NCBI RefSeq assembly: GCF_032854445.1
Contig: NC_088300.1
Coordinates: forward strand, 25,773,608-25,837,607
Source: Liolophura sinensis
Lineage: Eukaryota > Mollusca > Polyplacophora > Chitonida > Chitonidae
Direction: 5' to 3'
Length of the DNA: 64,000 bases
Position numbers and translations under genes: made by a program. The notes beneath the pieces are model-generated. The model ran no database searches. It had not been told where the DNA came from and saw only the letters and a program-made list of their open reading frames with translations. Within the stretch, counting starts at the first letter, position 1; each line of letters starts with the position of its first letter. Below are positions 2,708-42,066 of this stretch, one piece after another.

Positions 2708-3085
2708 CTACTGCGAACTGCTCTCGTCTTTTGTTGCCAGTTTTTTCTTCAGTCTTCTGAAAAATCCCGTGTCTTCTTCTTGGGTGACTTTAAGTCCCTC
2801 TGTAGACACAATGAGACTACAATCCTTAACAGGGATACCGACAGCTCCAGTAGTTATCACCCCTGATCGTGAATACATTGTTTTGTAATAGTTCGTGTTA
2901 ATTCGATGTAAACTTTCGTACATTCTGTCACATTCTTGAACGTTGACATTTGTCGCTTCGCCGTGCTTGAATGCCAGAACGACTTTCTCTCGCAAGACTA
3001 CCCCAAGATCTCTTCCAATTTTGCTTTTATCCAGCGGCCAGTCTTCACACAGTCGTAAGAAATTACGATATCTTGACGCCGCCAT
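2708..3085 (-). CDS. UQCC2: UQCC2, ubiquinol-cytochrome c reductase assembly factor 2
   Basis: This intact single-exon frame encodes 125 residues. UQCC2 (MNF1) is a small mitochondrial matrix/inner-membrane protein. With UQCC1 it helps synthesis and early assembly of cytochrome b for respiratory complex III. The recognisable core is the start MAASRYRNFLRLCEDWPLD, then a GRDLG motif and the block CDRMYESLHRINTNYYK, all close to the vertebrate protein in order and spacing; length also fits. The C-terminus is a basic tail with two lysine/arginine clusters. I chose the ATG at 3083-3085 because homology begins exactly there. An in-frame ATG at 3121 would add 12 unrelated residues. No introns are visible, whereas as I recall the vertebrate gene has several. 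The gene lies just beyond the 3' side of LMAN2 and on the same strand. Confidence 0.93.
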   Translation of the reverse strand: MAASRYRNFLRLCEDWPLDKSKIGRDLGVVLREKVVLAFKHGEATNVNVQECDRMYESLHRINTNYYKTMYSRSGVITTGAVGIPVKDCSLIVSTEGLKVTQEEDTGFFRRLKKKLATKDESSSQ

Positions 3086-6106: not shown

Positions 6107-9100
6107 TTAATAGAATCGTTTGCGATTGTGTTGTTGTTTGTTTTGATACAAGACAAATCCAACCATTCCACACACTCCAACTCCAATGATGATTAAAATA
6201 ATAAGAAGTAGTAACTTCCACCCGGAGAAAGAACTTGTTTTTGTATCGTCCACCCGATCTGAAAAAAATTCGCAAACAATTAAGAAATCACTCATCTGAT
6301 ACCAGTTACATGAGTAGAGAGAGTTACATCTGTGTTATATTATGCATTAAAAAAAAGATCAATAGCATATCAATAGCATTATATCAATAGCATGCTTGTC
6401 ATAATGTAACATGTAATATTCAGAAGCCATCATAAGACAATAATATCACTCCTGGCTGATCTAAACATATCTTTTCTACAGACAGACTTCCTGTTAGCTG
6501 TCAGCTGAAGAGTTAGGCTCTGTAAGCACGATTTTGAAGTCTTGCTTTACATATTTATTGGATTGTTGCTGAACACCACAGTCTAAAATATTTCACACAT
6601 CCTCTCCGGTTGTATATGGGAAGGTCTGCCAGTTACCTGCGGCTGATTGTGGGTTTCCCCCGGGCTCTGCCCTGTTTCCTCCCACCATAATGCTGGACAC
6701 CGTCGTATAAGTGAAATATTCTTGAGTACGGCATAAAACACCAATCAAATAAATAAATAAAATATTTCTCATATAATATGGTAGTTAATTTTATGGGTGG
6801 AACTGAAAAATCCACAAGCGCTTGAACCATGGCTTATAACCATGTCATATATACAGGCAAAGATACAATGTATCAAACATATACACAGGATTTTCATATC
6901 TCTGACATCATCTACTTTATCGATCAATAAAATTTCACTAAAACTTTCATCACCTTATTCAGTAATGATTAGGCTTTCCGTTGGTATAAAATACACAGCA
7001 TGTTTCACTCTGTTTCCACCAGAATCACACGTTTTATACACAATGACAGCCACCACAGATGGCCCAGTCGAAAAGTTCCTATGGTGAGGCACACACTGGA
7101 CCCATATACATTTACTTTGACAAGAAACATCTAGTGACCCTAAAGGAACCTACAACCCTGAGGGACCCTTAAAACCCTGCGTGCTTTATGTTTACTTTGC
7201 CCAATACTTTCATTTCTAGCTCAATATGGCTTTTTATACACAATATGTTAAGGAAATGGAATAAAATAACTTTAATCTTGAAAAAAAAGAACTAATTGTT
7301 TATTTTTCTTCTGAAATATCTTTAACAAGAACCACCATTTGCTGGCCAAAGTGAGGCAACTTACCCCTTGCAGGTTCAGTATTTTGAGCAGATGGTAAAA
7401 TTTTGCTGTAATCTAATGGATCATCTTTCTGTAAAAATAAACACAAAGAGAGAGGGCTTAAAGTACCTGTATGTTCGACATTCCTTATTTCAATGAGTTG
7501 ATTTATGGGATTATAAAATATAGCACCCATTTTGGTTTGTTTTTTTATTTTTTGTTTTTTTCACTCTTTCTTTGATACATGAAGAACAATTTCAGAGAAA
7601 GAATTTTCAGACAAGACCATCCCGCACATGACCAGAGAGGCAATCAGCATAGAAAGGCTTTAGGAGGTTTCTTTGGAAGGTAGGATGATATCCTACTGGA
7701 AAAGGTAAACAACGACTTGCTTCATGCAACACTTACTTGATTTTCTGGAGCCTCCAGTTCATAAAGCTTTACAGAAATGATGTCATGGTTATCTGGCGAG
7801 GAAAAAAATATATACTCTGGATTTGGTCATCAGCAAAGCCTTCATTATAAGTACCTTATTTAAAGACATCCCGTAGTGTCACAGGATGTATTAAAACTAA
7901 TTCTGGTTCCTTCATGTATTCTTTTGATTAGTGATTTCCACGAGACTCGAGAATATTTCAATTACATGTCAGCAGGCAATGACAAACCTTCTGATGCCAG
8001 GCCGCACTCAAGTTCGCAGGCACATGACTGGCAGACAAATTGAATTGAATACGGCCATGAGACTTGAGAATGTTCCAATTATATGTCAGCAGGCAATGAC
8101 AAACCTTCTGATGCAAGGCCGTACCCAAGTTCACAGGCACATGACTGGCAGACAATTTAACTTGGATACGTCCATGAGACTCAAGAATATTCAAATTACA
8201 TGTCAGCAGGCAATGACAAACCTTCTGATGCATAGCCGTACCCAAGTTCGCAGGCACATGACTGGCAGGCAAATTGATTTGGATAGGGCCATGAGACTCG
8301 AGAATGTTCCAATTATATGTCAGCAGGCAATGACAAACGTTCTGGTGCCAGGCCGTACCCAAGTTCGCAGGCACATGACTGGCAGACAAATTGAATTGAA
8401 TACCACCATGAGGCTTGAGAATGTTCCAATTACATGTCAGCAGGCAATGACAAACCTTCTGATGCCAGGCCGTACCCAAGTTCGCAGGCACATGACTGGC
8501 AGACAATTTGGCTTGGATACAGCCATGAGACTCGAGAATGTTCCAATTATATGTCAGCAGGCAATGACAAACCTTCTGATGCCAGGCCGTACCCAAGTTC
8601 GCAGGCACATGACTGGCAGACAAATTGAACTGAATACGGCCATGAGACTTGAGAATGTTCCAATTACATGTCAGCAGGCAATGACAAACCTTCTGATGCC
8701 AGGCCGTGCCCAAGTTCGCAGGCACATGACTGGCAGACAAATTGACTTGGATACGGCCATGAGACTCGAGAATGTTCCAATTATATGTCAGCAGGCAATG
8801 ACAAACCTTCTGATGCAAGGCCGTACCCAAGTTCGCAGGCACATGACTGGCAGACAATTTGACTTGAATATGGCCATGAGAGTCGAGAATGTTCCAATTA
8901 TATGTCAGCAGGCAATGACAAACCTTCTGATGCCAGGCCGTACCCAAGTTTGCAGGTACATGACTGGCAGACAATTTGGCTTGGATACGGCCATGAGACA
9001 AAGAGAATGTTCCAATTATATGTCAGCAGGCAATGACAAACCTTCTGATGCCAGGCCGTACCCAAGTTCGCAGGTACATGACTGGCAGACAAATTGACTT

Positions 9101-12100
9101 GGATACGGCCATGAGACAAAGAGAATATTCCAATTATATGTCAGCAGGCAATGACAAACCTTCTGATGCCAGGCCGTACCCAAGTTCGCAGGCACATGAC
9201 TGGCAGACAATTTGACTTGGATACGGCCATGAGACAAAGAGAATATTCCAATTATATGTCAGCAGGCAATGACAAACCTTCTGATGCATAGCCGTACCCA
9301 AGTTCGCAGACACATGACTGGCAGACAATTTGACTTGGATACGGCCACGAGACAAAGAGAATATTCCAATTATATGTCAGCAGGCAATGACAAACCTTCT
9401 GATGCCAGGCCGTACCCAAGTTCGCAGGCACATGACTGGCAGACAAATTGACTTGAATACCACCATGAGACAAAGAGAATATTCCAACTATATGTCAGCA
9501 GGCAATGACAAACCTTCTGATGCCAGGCCGTACCCAAGTTCGCAGGCACATGACTGGCAGACAATTTGACTTGGATACGGCCATGAGACAAAGAGAATAT
9601 TCCAATTACATGTCAGCAGGTAATGACAAACCTTCTGATTGACGTCACTGCCTGCTGACGTATAATTGAAAAATTCTTGTTGAAGTGTTAGTGGTCTGTA
9701 GACAGGGAACCTTGATCATTTACAGATATATATATATATTTGAATGTACATATGGTAGTGCATTCTCAGAATATGGTAGCATGTTTATTAAATATTTTCA
9801 AAACAGTAATTATTTACAGATATACACCTAGGCCTGTACATATGGTATTATGTTCTCAGAATATTTTCAAAACACTTACTGGAAGATTATTTACAGATAA
9901 ACACACCATACATGTACATGTACACATAGTGTTATGTTCTTAGAATTTGGTAACATGTTTGTTTTCAAAACAGTTACTGGAACAGGGCAATTTAAGCTTT
10001 ATTTTAAATTACCTGCCAATTCTCCTGTTGCAGCTGATATTCCAAAAAAATATCCTGTTGGTAGTTTTACCCCAGTTGACGTGAAACACTCTTTCCATTC
10101 ACCATTCCCCTCAATATCTGTTGAAACCTACATGAGGGTAAAAACCACATACATTTTGAAGAAATGCACTGATTATTTTTCAATATGCAATTGCCTAAAA
10201 AAATTCAAGTTGAACAGTTGTTTCTCTGAATTGTCACTTCCAACATTATTTCAGCAATTCAGCTGGCTGGAACATTATTGGCCATTTTTTTGTGATGCTG
10301 CTTGACTGAACATCATGCTAAAGATACCAGACAATCCAACCTGTCAAGCTATTTGACTCCACGGGCCATTTTCTCAAGCAACTTAAGACTTAAATCATAA
10401 ATATCAAATCCCTAAAAAACCCAAACTCAGAACAGGAAAGAAATCAAACAGTGGATAGTACATTGTTTTTTTTTTGCAGTAAAGAATCAATGTACAAATT
10501 TTTAGCCTTCTAAAGCAAAACATTTTATTTGTAGACGTTTGAATTTTTGACTTTAAGACGTTTGATAAATATGGGCACTAAATACCAACTCCTCGGAGGG
10601 GATGATGGTCTTTGCTGTAAATCTTGAGTTACTGTATGATGTTTGGATTTAACATTATAAGATGGCTGCAGAGGGACAGTATAAACCAGCTTGTCTTTGA
10701 TGAATGTATACATGTATGTATGTCTGCTTGGGGTTTAATGTCGTACCAAACAATTTTTAGTCATATGGCGACGCAGAGCCATTAGGTGTGTGTGCATAGC
10801 CTGTGGTCTTCTTGTGGCAGGGACCGGCCTGGATAGCACAGTTGGTAGAGCGTCCGTTTCGGGACCGGTAGATCCAGGATCAATCCTTGGTCGAGTCACA
10901 CCTAAGACTTTAAAAGAGGAAGTTGTAACTTCCTCGCTTGGCGTTCAGCATGAAGGGGATAGTGCAACGACTGGTTGACCCGTATCAGTATAATGGCTCG
11001 GGCAGGGCGGCTTACTTGCCTTCGGTAAGTCGTCTCAGTGATGCAGCACTAAATAAAAGAGCGGTGGAAATCCGTCCTGCAACAAGGAGGCACAATTACA
11101 CGTGCATGCACCCTAATGATTCCTTCGTCGTCATATGACTGAAAAATTGTTGAGTACGACGTTAAACCCCAAGCACTCACTCACTCACTCTTGTGGCAGG
11201 ACGCCTCCATGTCGCCAAAATGATCAGTATCATGTGGGAGATACCAGTAATAACACTCTGCTTCCTTGCTTTAAATTCTCAGTGCTGAGGGCCAAAAAGG
11301 GCAGTGACAAGTACCATTTTTAAAGTCTTTCGTGTGACTCGACCTAGGTTTAATCCTGCGTCTCGTGACTTCAAGACCGACGCTCTAACCAAAAGGCCAC
11401 AGAAGCAGTCTGCTGTCAGCAGTCTACTTGATACATGGACAGTTTCCAGTCTACCATTACTACATTGTGATATCAGATGGCTATATACATTATGCTTTTA
11501 GGATAGAGACAGCAGCCAGCTTACGGTAAATGACCTAGAGTTTCGCTTGTGCTAGCACTGTGTGCGAGCCCGGCATATCGGGAGTCAGACAGGTGTTGCT
11601 GATGTATCAGAAGTTCACACAACACCGACTGGCTATATATCAAAACAAAGAGCATGTTTTATGATTACCAGTATGCAAATATGCCCAGGTGTCACCAGCC
11701 AGATGGTAAGATTATTTTTTTGCCTTTGGTCGGCAAAAATCATGCCATCAACGAGTATAGCAGACACGTAGAGATTTTGAGACAGGTGACTGTAAGTTTA
11801 AACATTGTTTGTGTCATCATCTGCTGGTAATTGGCAAGTAAGGATTTGCCCAGTGCTAAGTCCTGTAATAGCTTTGTATGTGAAGAGCTCTGCATGCATA
11901 TTAATGGATATCTGACATGCCACTCCACATGTGCAAAGGTACTGGGTGGTCAAGCTCAGCAATCTCCCAGGAGTTTTCTCCTGGATTCCCTTTCATCATA
12001 AAACGGCGATCATACAATAATCAAGGTGCACCTTTTGTGAAATAAACCTTTATGTACTAAATCCATCACAATTAAAACTGAGGAAAATGAACTGTTGGTG

Positions 12101-15100
12101 GCAGGAGCATAGACTAACAGCTCAATGAAGCGTGAGCTTGTGAATTTTATTCGAGGATTGTCCATATAATCCCCTGACCACCACCGATGCCCTCCCAAGG
12201 TACCCGGTCAGAAATAAGAACAATCAACGCAACAAATCCTGGGATACCAGATGGCTGGAGAGGACCAGTAACAGGCTTACATTAGTGTGTTATCATGGTA
12301 CCAGATTGCTAGAGAGGACCAGCAACAGGCTTACATTAGTGTGTTATCATGGTACCAGATGGCTAGAGAGGGTCAGGGACAGACTCACCTTTAGTGTCTT
12401 ATCATGGTACCAGATGGCTGGAGAGGACCAGTAACAGGCTTACAGTAGTGTGTTATCATAGAACCAGATGGCTAGAGAGGGTCAGGGACAGGCCCACCTT
12501 TAGTGTATTATCATGGTACCAGATTGCTAGAGAGGACCAGCAACAGGCTTACATTAGTGTGTTATCATGGTACCAGATTGCTAGAGAGGACCAGCAACAG
12601 GCTTACCTTTAGTGTATTATCATGGTACAATATGGCTAGAGAGGTCCAGCGACAGGCTTACTTTTAGTGTATTATCATGGTACAAGATGGCTAGAGAGGT
12701 CCAGCGACAGGCTTACCTTTAGTGTATTATCATGGTACCAGATTGCTAGAGAGGACCAGCGACAGGCTTACCTTTAGTGTATTATCATGGTACCAGACTG
12801 CTAGAGAGGACCAGCAACAGGCTTACCTTCAGTGTATTATCATGGTACTAGATGGCTAGAGAGAACCAGCAACAGGCCCACCTTTAGTGTATTATCATGG
12901 TAGAAGATTGCTAGAGAGGACTTGTGGCAGGCTTACCTTTAGTGTATTATCAAGGTACCAGATGACTAGAGAGGACCAGCAACAGGCTTACCTTTAGGGT
13001 ATTATCATGGTACCAGATGGCTAGAGAGGACCAGCGACAGGCTTACCTTTAGTGTATTATCATGGTACAAGATGGCTAGAGAGGTCCAGCAACAGGCTTA
13101 CCTTTAGTGTATTATCATGGTACAAGATGGCCAGAGGGGTCCAGCGACAGGCTTACCTTTAGTGTATTATCATGGTACCAGATTGCTAGAGAGGACCAGC
13201 GACAGGCTCACCTTTAGTGTATTATCATGGTACAAGATGGCTAGAGAGGTCCAGCGACAGGCTCACCTTTAGTGTATTATCATGGTACAAGATGGCTAGA
13301 GAGGTCCAGCGACAGGCTTACCTTTAGTGTATTATCATGGTACCGGACGGCTATAAACGTCTCCACATCTTTGTTCCTGAATGAAGATTCACAGCCATTG
13401 AGTTGGGTAAGGGTGCCATCCTGGTCATGATCATAGTGCACGGTACCATTACTCACCATAGCTGATATATAGGGGTGAGTGTGCTGTCAAGGAAACGCAA
13501 TGGTCAGTAGCAGTAAGAAAGGTATGCCATGACGTAGTAAACAATATAAAAAGTCACTTGAAAATTTTGTGCTGTTTGAATGATCAACTTCTGTCGTCTT
13601 GATCGCAGGATATCTCTGGACTTCGCTTGAACAAACACAGAGTGGAACTGATGGCATTTTTTTTCGCTGGTCAAAGCTAGATGTTACAAAAACTATGACC
13701 ACTGTACTTTACGAATGATCTACAATCAAGGAGAGACAAATGACTGTTTCAATACACCACCAATAATCATACAGTTTTAAAGTGAATGAGAGCAAAAATG
13801 TTTAACCAATGTACATTATGTAACAGAATACCTTTTAAGAGCCAGATCAAAATCTTGAAGTACTATCGTTGATTTTATAACCGAGATTTTCAAGGAGATC
13901 ATACAACCATAAATTTCATCCACGACTAACCTACCCAGTTTTCCTGATTCTGAGAGTTCTATTGATTTTAGAAAAGTGTTTTGAGGTTTACTTGGAAGAT
14001 GGGATGATACTCTACTGGGAAATTTAATGTTTAGGCACTAAAAATAGTATTTTGTGACATTTACTTGCCTCTAAAAATGCACTTTTGTGGGCGAAATTTT
14101 AGGTCGTTTAGGGGAACTCACCTGATGTGGTCCATTGTGATTGCTATAGGTATCCATGAATATAGCCAACCCACTGAAAAAGTCTTTGCTGCCAAATACT
14201 GGACCTGATTTATGAACAGAGAAAGGACAGCCACTGTAGACTTAGAAACAGTGATAATGACTATCTTAACACTACATGTATTTGGTAAAGCAAAGTGATC
14301 CAATAGCATGAAAAACAAAGTCACATAAATCATGTTCAATGGGTCCGGATTGAATCTACATAAAAGAAAGTCACATAAATCATGTTCAACAGGTTCGGAT
14401 TGAATCTACATAAAACAAAGTCACATAAATCATGTTCAACAGGTCCGGATTGAATCTACATAAAACAAAGTCACATAAATCATGTTCAACAGGTTCGGAT
14501 TGAATCTACATAAAACAAAGTCACATAAATCATGTTCAACAGGTTCGGATTGAATCTACATAAAACAAAGTCACATAAATCATGTTCAACAGGTTCGGAT
14601 TGAATCTACGTAAAACAAAGTCACATAAATGATGATCAACAGGTCCGGATTGAATCTACAAAAAAGAAAGTCACATATACCATGTTCAACAGGTGCGGAT
14701 TGAATCTACATAAAAGAAAGTCACACATATCATGTTCAACAAGTCCGGATTGAATCTACAAAAAAGAAAGTCACAATCATTTTCAATGGGTGCTGGATTG
14801 AATCTACAGACAATGAACAAACAACATCAGTATCTACTATAGCACAATTTTGAGTTTTAAATTCATAACAAAAAATTCATCACTAATAGACATTCTCTCT
14901 GTATGCTTTTTAACTGACACAAGGTTTTTTAAAGAATTTTAAATACTGGGCCGTGATACAGATGTAAACTTGAGCTTGAAACTTGAAGTTGCTCTAATGG
15001 TATCAATGCATATAAAAATAAACAGATTTGGGTAATTCCCATGTTCATAACTTTAACAATGTGAAACAGTGTACATTTAAATGTAATATATATATACATA

Positions 15101-17616
15101 TATATATACTATACTATACTATACTATACTATACTAGATATACATATATATATAAGGGAGTCATCATGAGAATCATATTCTCAGATTCGCGTTGAAGGTA
15201 AAGTCCAGCAATTGCTGTTGGTCAACTAGAGAACCCCTCATTACATTAAATATGCATAAGCTCAAATGATTACCTGGCTGCATTCTGTCTCTTGTGTACC
15301 ATATCGCAAACCCATCCCCAAACAGACTTTTCCCAGATCCATGAACCTTGAAATGGACATGAAGCTCCCAATTCCTGATGAAACAAGGCTGTAAAACAGA
15401 ATTATAGATCCACCATATCATAACTAAATATCACAAATTAATGTTTGGGGTAAAATTAATTAACACTTCACTCATACTGCAATAACACTTTTGGGGCAAT
15501 TCTGATGTTCGGCAGAATGCAGGAAATTACAAAACCGAAAATCTGTACTAAATCATTCAGCAACAATTTTACAGTGAAAATGTACAGTGCCCTTGATAAT
15601 CTCTCAGTTTTACACTACATGATACTATTTGCATAAGTATAACAGTATATGGTAATTTGTAACTCAAATTAGCTGTTTTTTTTCAAAATCCCCAGCATCC
15701 ACAGGAAACATAAAATCACTTAAACTCACCAAACTATTCCAAATACTTCCTTGTTGACTTTGTCTGTCAGACGTCAACCGTATAAAGTTATTTGTCACCA
15801 TTGTACTGCCATAGAAATCCCACAATGGCACATTCATCCCAGACCCTGAAAACAAATAGGGGCACAAATGTACTCTTCTCCCTAGAAGTATGCATGTAAA
15901 ACCATCAGCTCTGTTTGAAAGTGAAACAAAACCAACATCAGCAAAATGACCACTGAAAACAATAAGCAATACTACAAATTAACATACTATTTATTTAAAT
16001 TTTTTTCTTGACATGATTTTTATTCTCCTAATTTCCTGAAGTTTGATATGTAAATGGCTTTTATAGATCAAACTGACATTGTTGGATTCAAATGAAAGTG
16101 ATGTAACTCTTAATCAATTACTTTCAACCTGAAAAGTTTATTTGTGCTATGTGTACCTATATGCCCATAAACAAGCTCCCTTAATATTAAATACCATGTT
16201 TGGAGTAAAAACAAGGTTTGTGATGTACATGAAACCAAACGTATGTTGTAGATCTTAAACTTCAAACAATGAACTGCACATTTGTATTCTGTTTTTTATC
16301 ATTTTAATCCTGCCCCTATTTCTATGTCAGCGTAATCCTTTACGAAAACATGGAAAGTTTACTTCAGCTACATTCAAAACTATTTATTTATTTATTTATT
16401 TATTTGATTGGTGTTTTACGCCGTACTCAAGAATATTTCACTTATACGACGGCGGCCAGCATTATGGTGGGAGGAAACGGGGCAGAACCTGGGGGAAACT
16501 CACGACCATCCGCAGGTTGCTGTAGGACCTTCCCACATACTGCCGGAGAGGAAGCCAGCATGAGCTGGACTTGAACTCATAGCGACCTCATTTGTGAGAT
16601 ACTCCTGGGTCATTGAGCAGCGCTAGCGCACTAACCAACTGGGCCACGGAGGCCCCCCATTCAAAGCTACACACAATCTTGATTTCATTATAAGCAGAAT
16701 CGGCACTTTAGGAGTTCATGCAGATATTGACGAGACAGGGTGGGGATATCTACAGTATTTGCTAGACTGAATATTCATCTCGCATACCCAGGCCTGCTGG
16801 CTCAACAGCACCTGTAGTTAGTTCACAAGAGCCTCCACCCTGTTTTTTAACACTTGGGTTAACTCCTGAAATGCCGACTCATTAAAGGTTTATTAATAAT
16901 TACTGATAACAATTAGTGTGGATTTTGCCAAAAGGTCTCACATACACATGAAGGCACACTATTGGCTTTTCTCAGCTAGACAGACCGCGTGACTCGCAAT
17001 TTCCCGTTTACATCAAAGCTCCCATATTACAAACGATTGAAAAGCAGATAGTGCACCTAGCTCCACATACAGCACTGAAATTTAGGCCACAGCAAAATAG
17101 TTATTTTCACTGTATCAACAAATACCGTAAGTCAACAAGTTTTAATGTCCTTTGTACTTGTTACTCTGACGTTAAAGATTTAAAACGACTGATGGCCTGA
17201 ACACGCCCTCTTGAACTTGTACCAAACGAAGTATATTAATAAAAAATGCTTCAATTTATGTATTACCCATCTATTTTTTACCATTGAGACAGATCAACGC
17301 AGAAAATATACAATAAATATTGCTGAAAGATTATCCTGCCGCACTGTTTTCTAACAATAGCCATGATCAGTTCAAAAACCGGTACATCAAAGCAAGGTTA
17401 TCACTGGGTGCTCAGTTTTCGTGAAAGACACATCAGCATCCTTGTGGGTATAAACCAGGTATAAAGCTTACCCTGGTACGGTTTCACCAAAGAGTGTTCT
17501 CTCTTCAAATAATCATTGGTGTCGAACCCAGTTAACGCTGGACAAAAGTTGATCAAAACCAACACGAGAATCGCCAAAAACTTCGACAGAAAATTCTCCA
17601 TGTTGCCACCCGTCAT
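6107..17616 (-). CDS. LMAN2: LMAN2/VIP36-like L-type lectin, 9 exons
   Basis: Type I membrane lectin of the ER-Golgi system that binds high-mannose glycans on secretory cargo. Coding exons, in order: 17616-17472, 15845-15730, 15388-15274, 14204-14122, 13483-13322, 10127-10013, 7792-7737, 7428-7365, 6258-6107. All have GT-AG introns and matching phases, giving 335 residues. Residues 1-30 hold a hydrophobic signal peptide, about 35-265 the lectin domain, 301-323 one membrane span, and the cytosolic tail ends KRFY as in VIP36. Likely sugar and calcium ligands are conserved: Asp112, Asp143, Asn147, His172 and Asp175. Gly-Glu-Leu at 242-244 replaces the usual Gly-Asp-Leu. Cys184 and Cys221 should form the lectin disulfide. 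The ATG at 17601 has a better start context and is an alternative. The paralogue LMAN2L is possible. Three introns carry minisatellites. Confidence 0.95.
6597..6765 (+). mobile_element. SINE family A copy in 3' part of LMAN2 locus
   Basis: It lies in LMAN2 intron 8 and runs from CCTCTCCGG through CTCCCACCATAATGCTGG to an (AAAT)n tail. AAAATATTTC is repeated on both sides (near 6587 and 6762) as the likely target-site duplication. The tRNA-like head is absent. Confidence 0.85.
7640..7715 (+). repeat. Short copy of an unnamed dispersed repeat
   Basis: The segment around GAGGTTTCTTTGGAAGGTAG and GGATGATATCCTACTGG matches 13975-14025, 45240-45285 and, inverted, 31690-31750. Here it lies in LMAN2 intron 7, right beside exon 7. 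The family is described under the findings. Confidence 0.6.
7935..9648. repeat. 117/118-bp minisatellite array, about 14.5 copies
   Basis: The array lies in LMAN2 intron 6. Each unit contains ATGTCAGCAGGCAATGACAA and CACATGACTGGCAGACAA. The first units are 117 bp and start GAGACTCGAGAATGTTCC; those after about 8995 are 118 bp and start GAGACAAAGAGAAT. A period divisible by three keeps long frames open on both strands in the first part, and these are by-products rather than genes. The sequence after the last unit holds a reverse-complement copy of the array start. Confidence 0.95.
10725..11420 (-). mobile_element. Older tRNA-derived SINE, interrupted by a SINE B copy
   Basis: The left part (10727-10821) has the tail and core (TTGGGGTTTAATGTCGTACC, then AGTCATATGGCGACG). 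The right part (11201-11420) ends in the reverse complement of a tRNA-like head: read on the minus strand, GGTTAGAGCGTCGG is an A-box-like stretch followed by a degenerate B box. The two parts are separated by the intact SINE B at 10822-11188. Its head differs from that of family B, so it is a related subfamily. Confidence 0.7.
10822..11188 (+). mobile_element. Full-length SINE family B with tRNA-like head
   Basis: The copy starts with CCGGCCTGGATAGCACAGTT, GGTAGAGCG (A box) and a degenerate B box. The body contains CGGGCAGGGCGGCTTACTTG, and the copy ends in GTTAAACCCCAAGCACTCAC plus TCAC repeats. It is flanked by the 12-bp direct repeat TCTTGTGGCAGG (10810-10821 and 11189-11200). This is the best reference copy in the window. 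It sits in LMAN2 intron 5, inside an older SINE. Confidence 0.93.
12235..13349. repeat. 55-bp minisatellite overlapping LMAN2 exon 5 donor
   Basis: About 20 tandem units of 55 bp occur, each with a form of GTATTATCATGGTACCAGAT, GGCTAGAGAGGACCAGC and AACAGGCTTACCTTTAGT. The rightmost unit is the last 28 bp of LMAN2 exon 5 plus its splice donor. On the minus strand nearly every unit repeats CACTAAAG followed by GTAAGCCTGT or GTGAGCCTGT. The leftmost units are more diverged (AATGTAAG). The array fills the start of intron 5. Confidence 0.95.
13910..14115 (+). repeat. Unnamed dispersed repeat, longest copy
   Basis: The copy runs from GATTCTGAGAGTTCTATTGA through GGGATGATACTCTACTGGG to CTCTAAAAATGCACTTTTGT. 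Related sequence occurs at 7640-7715, 45235-45380 and, in reverse, 31620-31780. It ends against LMAN2 exon 4 in intron 4. No terminal repeats or coding capacity are seen. Confidence 0.65.
14320..14812. repeat. 50-bp minisatellite, about 10 copies
   Basis: Units of exactly 50 bp start GTCACATAAATCATGTTCAA and contain CGGATTGAATCTACATAAAA. Unit starts fall at 14320, 14370, 14420 and so on to 14770, with the last copies more diverged. The array lies in LMAN2 intron 3, about 115 bp from exon 4. Confidence 0.95.
15091..15152. repeat. AT and ACTAT microsatellite
   Basis: A core of about six ACTAT units is flanked on both sides by ATATAT tracts. It lies in LMAN2 intron 3, just beyond exon 3. Confidence 0.9.
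16383..16657 (-). mobile_element. Full-length SINE family A with target-site duplication
   Basis: This is the reference copy of family A. On the minus strand it begins GGGGGGCCTCCGTGGCCCAG, with GGTTAGTGCGCTAGCG as the A-box region and GAGTTCAAGTCCAGCTC as the B-box region. The core is GTTTCCTCCCACCATAATGC, and the tail is CAATCAAATAAATAAATAAA. The flanks carry CATTCAAAACTA and CATTCAAAGCTA (16371-16382 and 16658-16669). It lies in LMAN2 intron 1. Confidence 0.93.
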
Positions 17617-25707: not shown

Positions 25708-28184
25708 TCAATCAAACTCTGGAATGTCTTCATATGAATATCCAGTGTAGCCCTTATAAGCGTAACAGGCAAGTCTGACATGGTAGGCCCCAGGAATAAA
25801 CATGATAGACCCCAGTATCAGCAGGGGCCAGGTTCTGTCCGAATACTGTCAAAGAAGGTAAATGAAAGGCTTATAATCATCCTTGAATAAATAGGAAATA
25901 AATTCAAATAAGTATTGGTACAATTATTGTGTACCTATACATATGTACATAATACAATTTATGTAAATATGTGGGAAGAACCATAAATAATAAGATGAAC
26001 ATACTTTTTGGTGTAATGACTGATGTATTAAATCAAATGTTAGCTTCACCCGTGGAGCTAGTGCAAAGAAAGGAATATTATGGTAAACTGGGTCTGATGG
26101 TGGGAGAAAAAGGGAGATAATAAAAATGGAGATATCCANNNNNNNNNNNNNNNNNNNNNNNNNNNNNNNNNNNNNNNNNNNNNNNNNNNNNNNNNNNNNN
26201 NNNNNNNNNNNNNNNNNNNNNNNNNNNNNNNNNNNNNNNNNNNNNNNNNNNNNNNNNNNNNNNNNNNNNNNNNNNNNNNNNNNNNNNNNNNNNNNNNNNN
26301 NNNNNNNNNNNNNNNNNNNNNNNNNNNNNNNNNNNNNNAGAAGAAAGGAGATAATGTAAATGGAGACATCCAGATTCAGAGGTCTAAATGTCCGGTTAAT
26401 CGCGTCTTTTTAATACTCTCCAGCCGTATGTGGGAAGGTCTCTCAGCAACCTGCGGATTGTTGTGGATTTCTCCCAGTTTCCTCCCACCATTATGCTGCC
26501 CACTGTTGTATAAGTGAAATGTTCTTGCGCACGGCATAAAACAACAAATACTAAGTATCACAAAGCAGATGCCCTTAGTGAAGGTTTCAATGCATACAGT
26601 GTACTTGTAAAGGAAACAGGTATTGGGGATTCCATGTTTATAACTTCAATGATGTGAAACAATGTACATTTGTATTTCACTGAAAATTATTTTTGTGGCT
26701 ACATATACCTGTATCAGAATCCATTTTGATTCCTTTGACTTACAAGTGTCGTGACGATAATCAGATTAACATCAAAAGTAAAGACCTGCCAGCAAATGGG
26801 GGATTTTAGCCAGATTAATTGAATGACTCAGCAAAATATTTTGCATTTGCAAACTTCAGAACAAATAATTTTGTTCAGTCAGAAAAAATCACGTCAAAGC
26901 TTCACTGTGTTCTGACAACATTACCTGAGCCGGATGTAGCCCGATAGGAGAAGTGCTCCGACCACAATAAGAATGGTTCCTCCCAGGAAAAGCACTGTGG
27001 CGAGAATGATAGCTTTGTACGGTATCTTAGGTGGGGGCTTCTCAAACTGTGGATGCATAAAGGTCATGTCCAAACTGAATAAAATTATAGTCAAATTTCA
27101 CCAACAAACTTAAACCAGTACAGAATAAAATTGGATGCAATTTGAAAGTGTAATTCATAACATTTTGAAGACTAACATGCGCATATAAAATTACACGTCC
27201 AGATAAAATAACATTCTTGAAATATGACAAAACATGCGCACTGTCTGCAGTGGAACTTAGGTAAGTCTCTCCTCCTTCCAAAAGTACAAAAACAACATTT
27301 ATAAAACATACAATAAGAAATTTAGGCCAAGAAAACCTGTAAATTTAACACCAGTATATAGGTAAATAAAAATGCACATTCTTACAGGAATGATGCTTAT
27401 ATTGTTACATTAACAGTAAGGAAAAAAATCAACCGCAAAATGACACTTAAGATGGGTAATAATACAAATATATCATGAGTTAAATAATGCTCTGAATACA
27501 ATGAATGCAATTATAACAGAAAAATAAAGGGACTGACAATAAATTTAAAAAAAAACAGGACATTTTGCTGAAGCCTTCTGTAGTGTACGTGTTACGTGGA
27601 TAAAAAATATGTACAGATAGTGTGGGCTTGATCTACTGTAAATCTTTTTAACCTCTGAAGCACTTTTTTGGTGGAATTGGTGCATACAATAATTATGAAC
27701 CTGACAATAAAATGATATGTTTGTGTCACTTAAGATGCAAGCTTCATGAAAATGCAAATTATTTCACTCTCTTCATACCCTCCCCCCCCCCCCCCCCCCC
27801 ACCACACACACACATTGTATATTGGTAGCACAGATGGTTGAAAAGGTTTGAAGCGGTAGGGTATCCGAATAGTTTGGCTGCCCTTCTGATTCACAAAAAG
27901 CTGTCAGTTTCATTATTTAATACTAGTATATGTAAATAGCACCAAAATGTACAAATACATGTATTATCATTTGCGATAAAAACTTCCCACCCCTAAACCC
28001 TTTTGGCCGGTTTAAAATACCCTTGATCATGCCCTGATTGTTATTACATAAAGTTAAACAAGGAAATAATGCCTCATACTTGCAGGTCCACAAAGCCATC
28101 ACTGCCAACCCTTTCTAACCGATGGTATTTCACACCAGACGACCCGAACACACTTCGCTTTGGCATTGTTGATGTTGCTGTCAT
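25708..28184 (-). CDS. TMEM230: TMEM230, two-span vesicle membrane protein, 3 coding exons
   Basis: TMEM230 (C20orf30) is a small membrane protein of secretory and recycling vesicles. Coding exons are 28184-28080, 27046-26925 and 25845-25708, giving about 121 residues. The N-terminal part is soluble ([10 protein letters not shown], then [20 protein letters not shown]), followed by two membrane spans ([19 protein letters not shown] and [18 protein letters not shown]) and the C-terminal [16 protein letters not shown]. Every block matches the vertebrate protein in order. One oddity: exon 2 ends in phase 2 but exon 3 reads from phase 0, so a single base is missing at that junction. Alignment expects exactly one residue there. 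A consensus error is the simplest cause. The first coding exon begins at a splice acceptor (28252), with 68 bp of 5' UTR. An upstream non-coding exon probably ends at 29966. Confidence 0.94.
26105..26375. repeat. Tandem repeat around an assembly gap
   Basis: The bases before the gap (GGAGATAATAAAAATGGAGA, then TATCCA) recur after it as GGAGATAATGTAAATGGAGA, then CATCCA. The gap at 26139-26338 therefore probably falls in a minisatellite of unknown length, in TMEM230 intron 2. Confidence 0.65.
26139..26338. other. Assembly gap of 200 N
   Basis: These are undetermined bases. The round number suggests a placeholder rather than a measured size. Confidence 0.99.
26405..26553 (+). mobile_element. 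SINE family A copy, truncated
   Basis: Starts ACTCTCCAGCCGTATGTGGG and ends GCGCACGGCATAAAACAACA without the long AAAT tail. AATACT on both sides is a possible short target-site duplication. It lies in TMEM230 intron 2. Confidence 0.75.
27781..27822. repeat. Poly-C and CA tract
   Basis: A run of about 19 C is followed by ACCACACACACACACA. Such runs are prone to length error in sequencing. Confidence 0.9.
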
Positions 28185-41418: not shown

Positions 41419-42066
41419 CTATCAGTATGTTGTTCTAGTGGGACAGCAGGATACTATTCTAGTAAGGCATCAAGCTGTTGTGGTCAGGCAGCAATCTGTT
41501 CTAGTGAGGCAGCAAGCTGTTGGGGACAGGTAGCACTCTGTTATAGTATGGCATCAAGCTGATGTGGTCAGGCAGCACTCTGTTCTAGTGAGGCAGCAAG
41601 TTGTTGTGGTCAGGCAGCACTCTGTTCTAGTGGGGCATCAAACTGTTGTGGTCAGGCAGCACTCTGTTCTAGTGAGGCAGCAAGTTGTTGTGGTCAGGCA
41701 GCACTCTGTTCTAGTGGGGCATCAAGCTGTTGTGGTCAGGCAGCACTCTGTTCTATTGAGGCAGCAAGTTGTTGTGGTCAGGCAGCACTCTGTTCTAGTG
41801 AGGCATCAAGCTGTTGTAGTCAGGCAGCACTCTGTTCTAGTAAGGCATCAAGCTGTTCCAGTGGGCCAACGTACTGTTCTAGTGAGGCATCAAGCTGTTC
41901 CAGTGGGCCAACATGCTATTCTAGTGAGGCATCAAGCTATTCCAGTGGGCCAACGTGCTTTTCTAGTGAGGCAGCAAGCTGTTCTGCTCTGAGGCAGGTT
42001 GCCGTCCTAGTGAGGTAACAGGTTGTTCTTAATGAGGCAGCTTATTCTAATAAGGCAGCATGCTGT
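41419..42066. repeat. Minisatellite, 42-bp unit built from two 21-bp halves
   Basis: Units read GTTCTAGTGAGGCAGCAAGC then TGTTGTGGTCAGGCAGCACTC. About 15 copies occur, with variant units (CCAGTGGGCCAAC) at the right. Because 42 is a multiple of three, a 142-residue frame stays open; it is a repeat by-product. It ends about 430 bp before the SPATA24 start codon. Confidence 0.92.

What the first reader, a model, noticed from the sequence alone, without database searches (positions are those of the whole stretch)
12235..13483. Minisatellite made from the end of an exon and its splice donor
Each 55-bp unit carries, on the minus strand, the last roughly 27 bases of LMAN2 exon 5, the donor GTAAGCC or GTGAGCC, and about 28 bases of intron. 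About 20 copies therefore follow the true donor at 13322, most with a near-perfect donor. Use of a downstream copy would add 55n bases and soon meet a stop (TGA in the first unit), giving a lectin domain without a membrane anchor, or a transcript for decay. How the spliceosome keeps to the first copy is a real question, and copy number may vary between individuals.
Basis: partly seen in the sequence, partly recalled or inferred. Interest (0 to 1): 0.75.

Follow-up and report, generated by a model that had tools for sequence, protein, structure and literature searches.

The report
Tandem repeat duplicating a splice site
In a chiton gene for a cargo-sorting lectin, the end of one exon and its splice signal have been copied nearly twenty times into the following intron; this is a known kind of repeat, seen before in amphioxus and people, and known rules of exon recognition predict that cells mostly use the first copy.

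Summary
On the minus strand an intact LMAN2/VIP36 gene has exon 5 (13483..13322) followed by a 55-bp array (12245-13353, 20.2 copies). All 20 donor positions keep GT. Of the 19 downstream copies, 9 match the true donor over 9 nt, 12 score about as well or better, and 5 are clearly weakened. All 19 read-through extensions meet a stop. The genome is the chiton Liolophura japonica (scaffold count and one scaffold length match exactly).

It is a donor-straddling ('mirage') minisatellite, a kind described in amphioxus Adh3 and globins and matched in layout by the human CBS VNTR and IFI6 minisatellite. How the first copy is kept has a good printed answer: in minigenes with long flanking introns, the upstream of two identical donors was used exclusively; this exon has 638- and 3194-nt introns. 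Donor columns are no more conserved than the rest of the unit, so I see no sign that decoys are selected for. The genome is rich in minisatellites (24 arrays in 200 sampled kb), and I found a second clear case, in an ankyrin exon. Junction use and copy-number variation could not be tested here.

The parts
13322..13483 (-). LMAN2 exon 5 (162 nt, phase 0 at both ends); its last 23-32 nt are the first, coding copy of the repeat
   Evidence: gapless VIP36 alignment across the exon 5/6 joint
13320..13321 (-). true donor GT (AAAG|GTAAGCC)
12245..13353 (-). 55-bp minisatellite, 20.2 copies, spanning the exon 5/intron 5 boundary; 19 decoy donors with first base of GT at 13266, 13211, 13156, 13101, 13046, 12991, 12936, 12881, 12826, 12771, 12716, 12661, 12606, 12552, 12497, 12443, 12388, 12334, 12280
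   Evidence: TRF; donors
13280..13282 (-). in-frame TGA met by every downstream-donor extension (codon 14 after the exon)
   Evidence: position counted from its output
10013..10127 (-). LMAN2 exon 6, the natural partner of the exon 5 donor; its acceptor lies about 2.1 kb past the array
6107..17601 (-). LMAN2 coding region, 9 exons: 17601..17472, 15845..15730, 15388..15274, 14204..14122, 13483..13322, 10127..10013, 7792..7737, 7428..7365, 6258..6107; lectin domain, hydrophobic segment and KRFY tail
   Evidence: its script ended exon 7 one base short (7738), which I corrected by hand to 7737 for the protein used; the corrected join was not re-run in a script

Best explanation
A short stretch straddling the exon 5 donor of an intact LMAN2 (VIP36) gene was tandemly duplicated and expanded to about 20 copies, giving a 'mirage' minisatellite in intron 5. 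The expansion is a DNA-level accident in a genome rich in minisatellites. The gene tolerates it because exon 5 is recognised across the exon: the donor nearest the exon's own acceptor, copy 1, is paired and used, and the downstream copies are passive decoys removed with the intron. Shown: structure, coding frame, donor strengths, stops, rarity of such sites in the window, gene integrity, a second case in this genome. Inferred: that copy 1 is used in vivo, that exon definition is the reason, and that slippage was the origin.
For: Array and donors. Joining 13322 to 10127 aligns to the solved VIP36 chain with no gap across the joint, E 3.4e-101 for the protein. All 19 extensions and all 19 mini-exon readings stop, so among these only copy 1 gives VIP36. 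Flanking introns are 638 and 3194 nt, the exon-definition regime in which minigenes with identical donors (365-nt introns) used the upstream donor exclusively and in which the human survey leans the same way (PMC9225289, Results part 1). No sign of selection on the decoys: donor columns +1..+5 hold 7 variants and 27 of 55 circular 5-column windows hold as few or fewer. A 13-base pair picked by eye at the array's two ends matches at 10 of 13; pairs this alike 55 nt apart occur at 178 places of the minus strand outside the array (of 63,653 places in all), so it is suggestive of slippage between short repeats, no more. Minisatellite load: 24 arrays, 17.5 kb, 8.75% of 200 kb sampled on C6. Second case: ankyrin exon with a 31-bp, 14.7-copy array starting 23 nt inside the exon.
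Against: No RNA evidence was available. The human survey found about 60% downstream preference when strength was not controlled and only 60% upstream preference when it was; the 'exclusive' result is for five minigenes with two donors, not twenty. More CBS repeats are reported to go with lower CBS activity (PMC5188458 passage), and IFI6 is reported to use two downstream repeat units as donors (PMC4526556 passage), so such decoys are not always silent. The exon-definition rule rests on human data.
Confidence: 0.8

Rival explanations
1. Copy-number rheostat: some U1 binding and splicing at the decoys diverts transcripts to decay, so array length tunes LMAN2 level, as reported associations suggest for the CBS VNTR.
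For: 12 of 19 decoys score about as well as the true donor or better; every extension gives a premature stop with exon joints downstream; CBS precedent, more repeats with lower activity (PMC5188458 passage).
Against: Donor columns are not specially conserved; minigenes used the upstream donor exclusively; amphioxus mirages are said not to disturb regular splicing.
Confidence: 0.12
2. Each unit works as a cassette mini-exon (acceptor CTCTCTAG, 28-29 nt, donor), so the array is a string of poison exons.
For: AG is kept before 18 of 19 mini-exons and all 19 readings stop.
Against: Unit acceptors score 2.9-6.8 against 5.6-10.0 for six of the gene's eight real acceptors (recalled matrix); 8.9% of 7,071 AG sites in the window score at least 5.22 and 21.7% at least 2.87; neighbouring units would leave 26-nt introns.
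Confidence: 0.04
3. Local RNA folding hides the copies and exposes only the first donor.
For: With 120 nt on each side the true donor costs 1.91 kcal/mol to open, less than any of the 12 strong decoys (2.82 or more).
Against: With 60 nt on each side it costs 4.53 and 9 of the 12 strong decoys cost less; the result depends on the window chosen.
Confidence: 0.04

Closest known systems
'Mirage' minisatellites of amphioxus (Adh3; globins BflGb6 and BflGb9)
   Same: [quoted passage not shown] Adh3 units of 10-72 bp; a BflGb9 duplicate of the 3' boundary of exon 2 (PMC3087553 passages; the original Adh3 paper was not held).
   Different: Here a chiton, 19 extra copies, donor side; instability and regular splicing not tested.
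Human CBS 31-bp VNTR, c.1444_1467+7(16_21)
   Same: By its notation the unit is the last 24 coding bases of an exon plus 7 intronic bases, 16-21 copies (PMC2630376 passages; the split is my reading of the notation).
   Different: Different gene, unit and origin; polymorphism is known there and untested here.
Human IFI6 (G1P3, 6-16) minisatellite with multiple splice donors
   Same: Repeat units that each offer a donor (title of Turri et al. 1995 seen in reference lists; passage in PMC4526556; original not held).
   Different: There two downstream units are reported in use as donors; here downstream use would give stops.
Intron gain by tandem duplication of AGGT (Rogers model)
   Same: Duplication of a stretch holding AG|GT (PMC4974935 passages).
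   Different: Here the intron's acceptor is about 2.1 kb beyond the array; no new intron is evident.

Membership tests
Mirage (boundary-spanning) minisatellite | Tandem repeat that spans an exon-intron boundary of a real gene | tested here: met
Mirage (boundary-spanning) minisatellite | Units carry copies of the AG/GT splice signal | tested here: met
   20 of 20 positions keep GT; 15 of 20 score 8.5 or more
Mirage (boundary-spanning) minisatellite | Regular splicing is kept at the authentic boundary | not testable with these tools
   no RNA data; protein homology favours it
Mirage (boundary-spanning) minisatellite | Length instability between haplotypes or cells | not testable with these tools
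   one copy of the locus found in the assembly
CBS-type donor VNTR affecting gene activity | Copy number linked to gene activity | not testable with these tools
   needs genotypes and expression
AGGT tandem-duplication intron gain | New intron whose GT and AG both come from the duplicated stretch | tested here: not met
   by the gene model intron 5 ends at 10128; the array ends at 12245
LMAN2/VIP36 | L-type lectin domain closer to VIP36 than to ERGIC-53 | tested here: met
   VIP36 3.4e-101 against 1.1e-42 for the best ERGIC-53 chain; Pfam Lectin_leg-like 2e-96. VIPL (LMAN2L) was not among the solved chains, so it was not compared.

The most novel reading that the evidence does not exclude
Boundary-spanning minisatellites are a genome-wide habit of this chiton: minisatellites arise or persist preferentially at splice donors, many genes carry strings of decoy donors, and their unstable copy number supplies heritable variation in splicing and raw material for new exons and introns.
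Probability: 0.15. Interest if true: 0.7.

Novelty: new member of a known kind. Interest (0 to 1): 0.38.

Why it matters
It gives a natural test, with 20 near-identical competing donors in one intron, of the rule that exon-defined splicing takes the donor nearest the exon's acceptor. It also carries boundary-spanning minisatellites, which I found in print for amphioxus and people, into a mollusc with a public HiFi assembly and RNA-seq from five tissues. The second case (ankyrin exon) and the count of tandem donors suggest a genome where the question can be asked at more than one locus.

Tried and rejected
Selection on the decoy donors: no sign, their columns are no more conserved than the rest of the unit. 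RNA structure as the selector: inconclusive, depends on window size. Cassette mini-exons: weak acceptors. LMAN2 duplicate or pseudogene: rejected; the three matches in the genome are exons 4, 5 and 6 of this locus (best candidates only) and the gene is intact. Amphioxus as host: considered after and rejected by mitochondrial gene order (COX3-ND3-ND2-COX1-COX2-ATP6 on one strand; ND1, ND6, CYTB, ND4L, ND4 on the other; genes other than COX1 named by eye, and that this order is molluscan is recalled) and by the assembly match. The other LMAN2 intron arrays (50 bp, intron 3; 117 bp, intron 6) are not visibly exon-derived: longest word shared with any exon 9 nt.

Census of tandem donors (AGGTRAG three times, repeats 28-58 nt apart): 3544 + 3976 matches against 1896 + 1185 for the same pattern read backwards, a ratio of 2.4, while the single motifs occur 55 and 47 times in 237 kb outside arrays. 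This leans towards the novel case. But the places listed (the start of C1 only) are mostly overlapping triples of a few arrays, and three further control patterns did not complete (and repeats of the first), so I do not claim enrichment. A chance estimate of 592-2201 arrays founded across a donor without selection rests on an assumed 5-8 introns per gene and on a sample of one scaffold.

Literature searches showed no chiton or other mollusc case in the titles and abstract openings listed; several lists were cut, searches returned nothing, probably because of my wording, and the library lacks most subscription papers.

Full report
The window lies on contig C6 of a 609,464,459-base, 632-contig genome. 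The published assembly of the chiton Liolophura japonica (GCA_032854445.1) has 632 scaffolds and 609,495,693 bases, 31,234 more than here. Its scaffold_1 is 96,433,062 bases, exactly the length of C1; scaffold_2 and scaffold_6 are 82,493,220 and 36,638,032 against 82,489,547 (C6) and 36,632,598 (C10) (PMC11068029, abstract and passages). The mitochondrial gene order fits a mollusc (recalled). The assembly used HiFi reads of 8.3 kb mean length at 14-fold coverage, so a 1.1-kb array is within reach of single reads.

On the minus strand there is a complete nine-exon gene. Its 331-residue protein matches the VIP36 lectin domain at 3.4e-101 and ERGIC-53 at 1.1e-42, and Pfam Lectin_leg-like at 2e-96 over residues 31-254. 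No second copy was found in the genome (best candidates only). Exon 5 (13483..13322) ends CTAAAG|GTAAGCC. Joined to exon 6 (10127) it aligns to VIP36 without a gap across the joint.

The array covers 12245-13353 with 20.2 units of 55 bp. All 20 donor positions keep GT. By a recalled human-like matrix the true donor scores 11.19; of the 19 downstream copies 9 are identical to it over 9 nt, 12 score 11.0 or more, 14 score 8.5 or more, and 5 score below 8, all five in the distal half. The U1 snRNA of this genome holds ATACTTACCTG at its 5' end, and the computed U1 duplex is -9.5 kcal/mol for the true donor and its identical copies and -4.3 to -4.5 for the five weak ones. In the 64-kb window 15 of 7,580 GT sites score at least as high as the true donor, and 11 of these are in the array. 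Local donor strength therefore cannot explain a preference for copy 1.

Consequences of using another copy: all 19 extensions reach TGA at codon 14 after the exon, and all 19 hypothetical single mini-exons stop too. The truncated protein would end inside the lectin domain, before the membrane segment. Exon joints remain downstream of the stop, so decay is expected from the established rule (inferred).

Is it under selection? Among 19 units, 76 of 1,045 cells vary and 26 of 55 columns never vary. The GT is among the invariant columns, but the five donor columns +1..+5 carry 7 variants and 27 of 55 circular windows of five columns carry as few or fewer. This argues against a maintained function for the decoys. 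Units show no gradient by distance (mean 6.4 differences; means for lags 1 to 7 are 5.5-7.1); one pair is identical, and four distal units share a junction shortened by one base (AAT|GT or ACT|GT).

Origin: the exon matches the unit consensus over its last 23 bases, then more weakly to 32 nt; the exact 23-mer recurs in 4 of 19 downstream units. The array's two ends carry a 13-base pair, picked by eye, that matches at 10 of 13; this is compatible with slippage between short repeats but is not strong evidence. Minisatellites are common here: 24 arrays of at least 4 copies and period 20-200 in 20 stretches of 10 kb from C6, in 10 of the 20 stretches, 8.75% of the bases. Two other LMAN2 introns carry arrays with no visible exon sequence. 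None of the other 27 arrays checked has a strong donor in most units, so the LMAN2 array is unusual in that respect, as expected if it was founded on a real donor.

A second case: I fetched seven of the eight or nine donor-bearing clusters among the places listed, all in the first 1.4 Mb of C1. One (L038) begins inside a coding exon with ankyrin repeats (open for 118 codons up to the donor; Pfam Ank_4, 2.4e-07). The exon is L038:198-499; its last 23 nt and about 8 nt of intron are repeated 14.7 times (31 bp), giving 10 further AG|GTGAGT sites in the array and one just beyond it, and read-through stops 11 codons on. In the other six no exon was recognised: open frames ending at the first listed donor are at most 43 codons, three of the longest gave no Pfam match, and in one of the six (L040) the array began outside the fetched stretch. 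So 1 of 7 is clear. The genome count of tandem donors is given under Tried and rejected; its controls were not completed.

What is known: boundary-spanning tandem repeats are called mirages in amphioxus; in Adh3 units are 10-72 bp, length and somatic instability are reported, and RT-PCR suggests that regular splicing is not disturbed (PMC3087553 passages). The human CBS VNTR is written c.1444_1467+7(16_21), the same layout by its notation (PMC2630376 passages), with more repeats reported to lower CBS activity (PMC5188458 passage). The human IFI6 minisatellite offers several donors and two downstream units are reported in use (PMC4526556 passage). I did not read the original papers on Adh3, CBS or IFI6. 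For donor choice, five minigenes with two identical donors and 365-nt introns used the upstream donor exclusively; in the human survey with near-equal donors the upstream one was preferred in 60% of events overall, with long introns leaning upstream and short introns downstream (PMC9225289, Results part 1). Exon 5 here has 638- and 3194-nt introns.

The proposed puzzle has a good existing answer that RNA data already public could confirm. I score interest 0.38, mostly for the number of intact decoys, a phylum for which the papers I could search showed no case, and the second case in the same genome.

Noticed in passing
L038 (G000:C1:829400-830600), 477-927: A second donor-straddling minisatellite: 31-bp unit, 14.7 copies, starting in the last 23 nt of an ankyrin exon; a diverged copy of the exon end with a donor lies just beyond the array (GT at 986).
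   Followed up: partly
L039 (G000:C1:1328300-1329800), 772-1033: A 52-bp unit repeated 5 times in which a pyrimidine stretch and AG abut GTAAG (CCCCTTTTATAG|GTAAG), which looks like recursive-splicing sites in tandem (the resemblance is recalled).
   Followed up: no
window 7938-9639: A 117-bp array (14.5 copies) in LMAN2 intron 6; 117 is a multiple of 3 and one minus-strand frame stays open for 354 codons. A piece gave only a sub-threshold Pfam match.
   Followed up: partly
window 14312-14808 and 41457-41984: Two more minisatellites (50 bp in LMAN2 intron 3; 42/84 bp elsewhere) with no donor of 8.5 or more in the parts scored (41457-41938 for the second).
   Followed up: partly
G000:C10 about 30.034-30.099 Mb, and C627: 32 U1 snRNA matches over the cut-off in this stretch of C10, mostly about 1.97 kb apart, and 4 more on C627.
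   Followed up: no
G000:C99 (108,685 bases): Seven COX1 copies about 15.5 kb apart, probably the circular mitochondrial genome unrolled by the assembler.
   Followed up: no
window 2711-3085, minus strand: An open frame matching the complex III assembly factor UQCC2/CBP6 family (Pfam PF20180, 9.4e-19).
   Followed up: partly
window 26139-26338: A 200-base run of N, an assembly gap or masked stretch.
   Followed up: no
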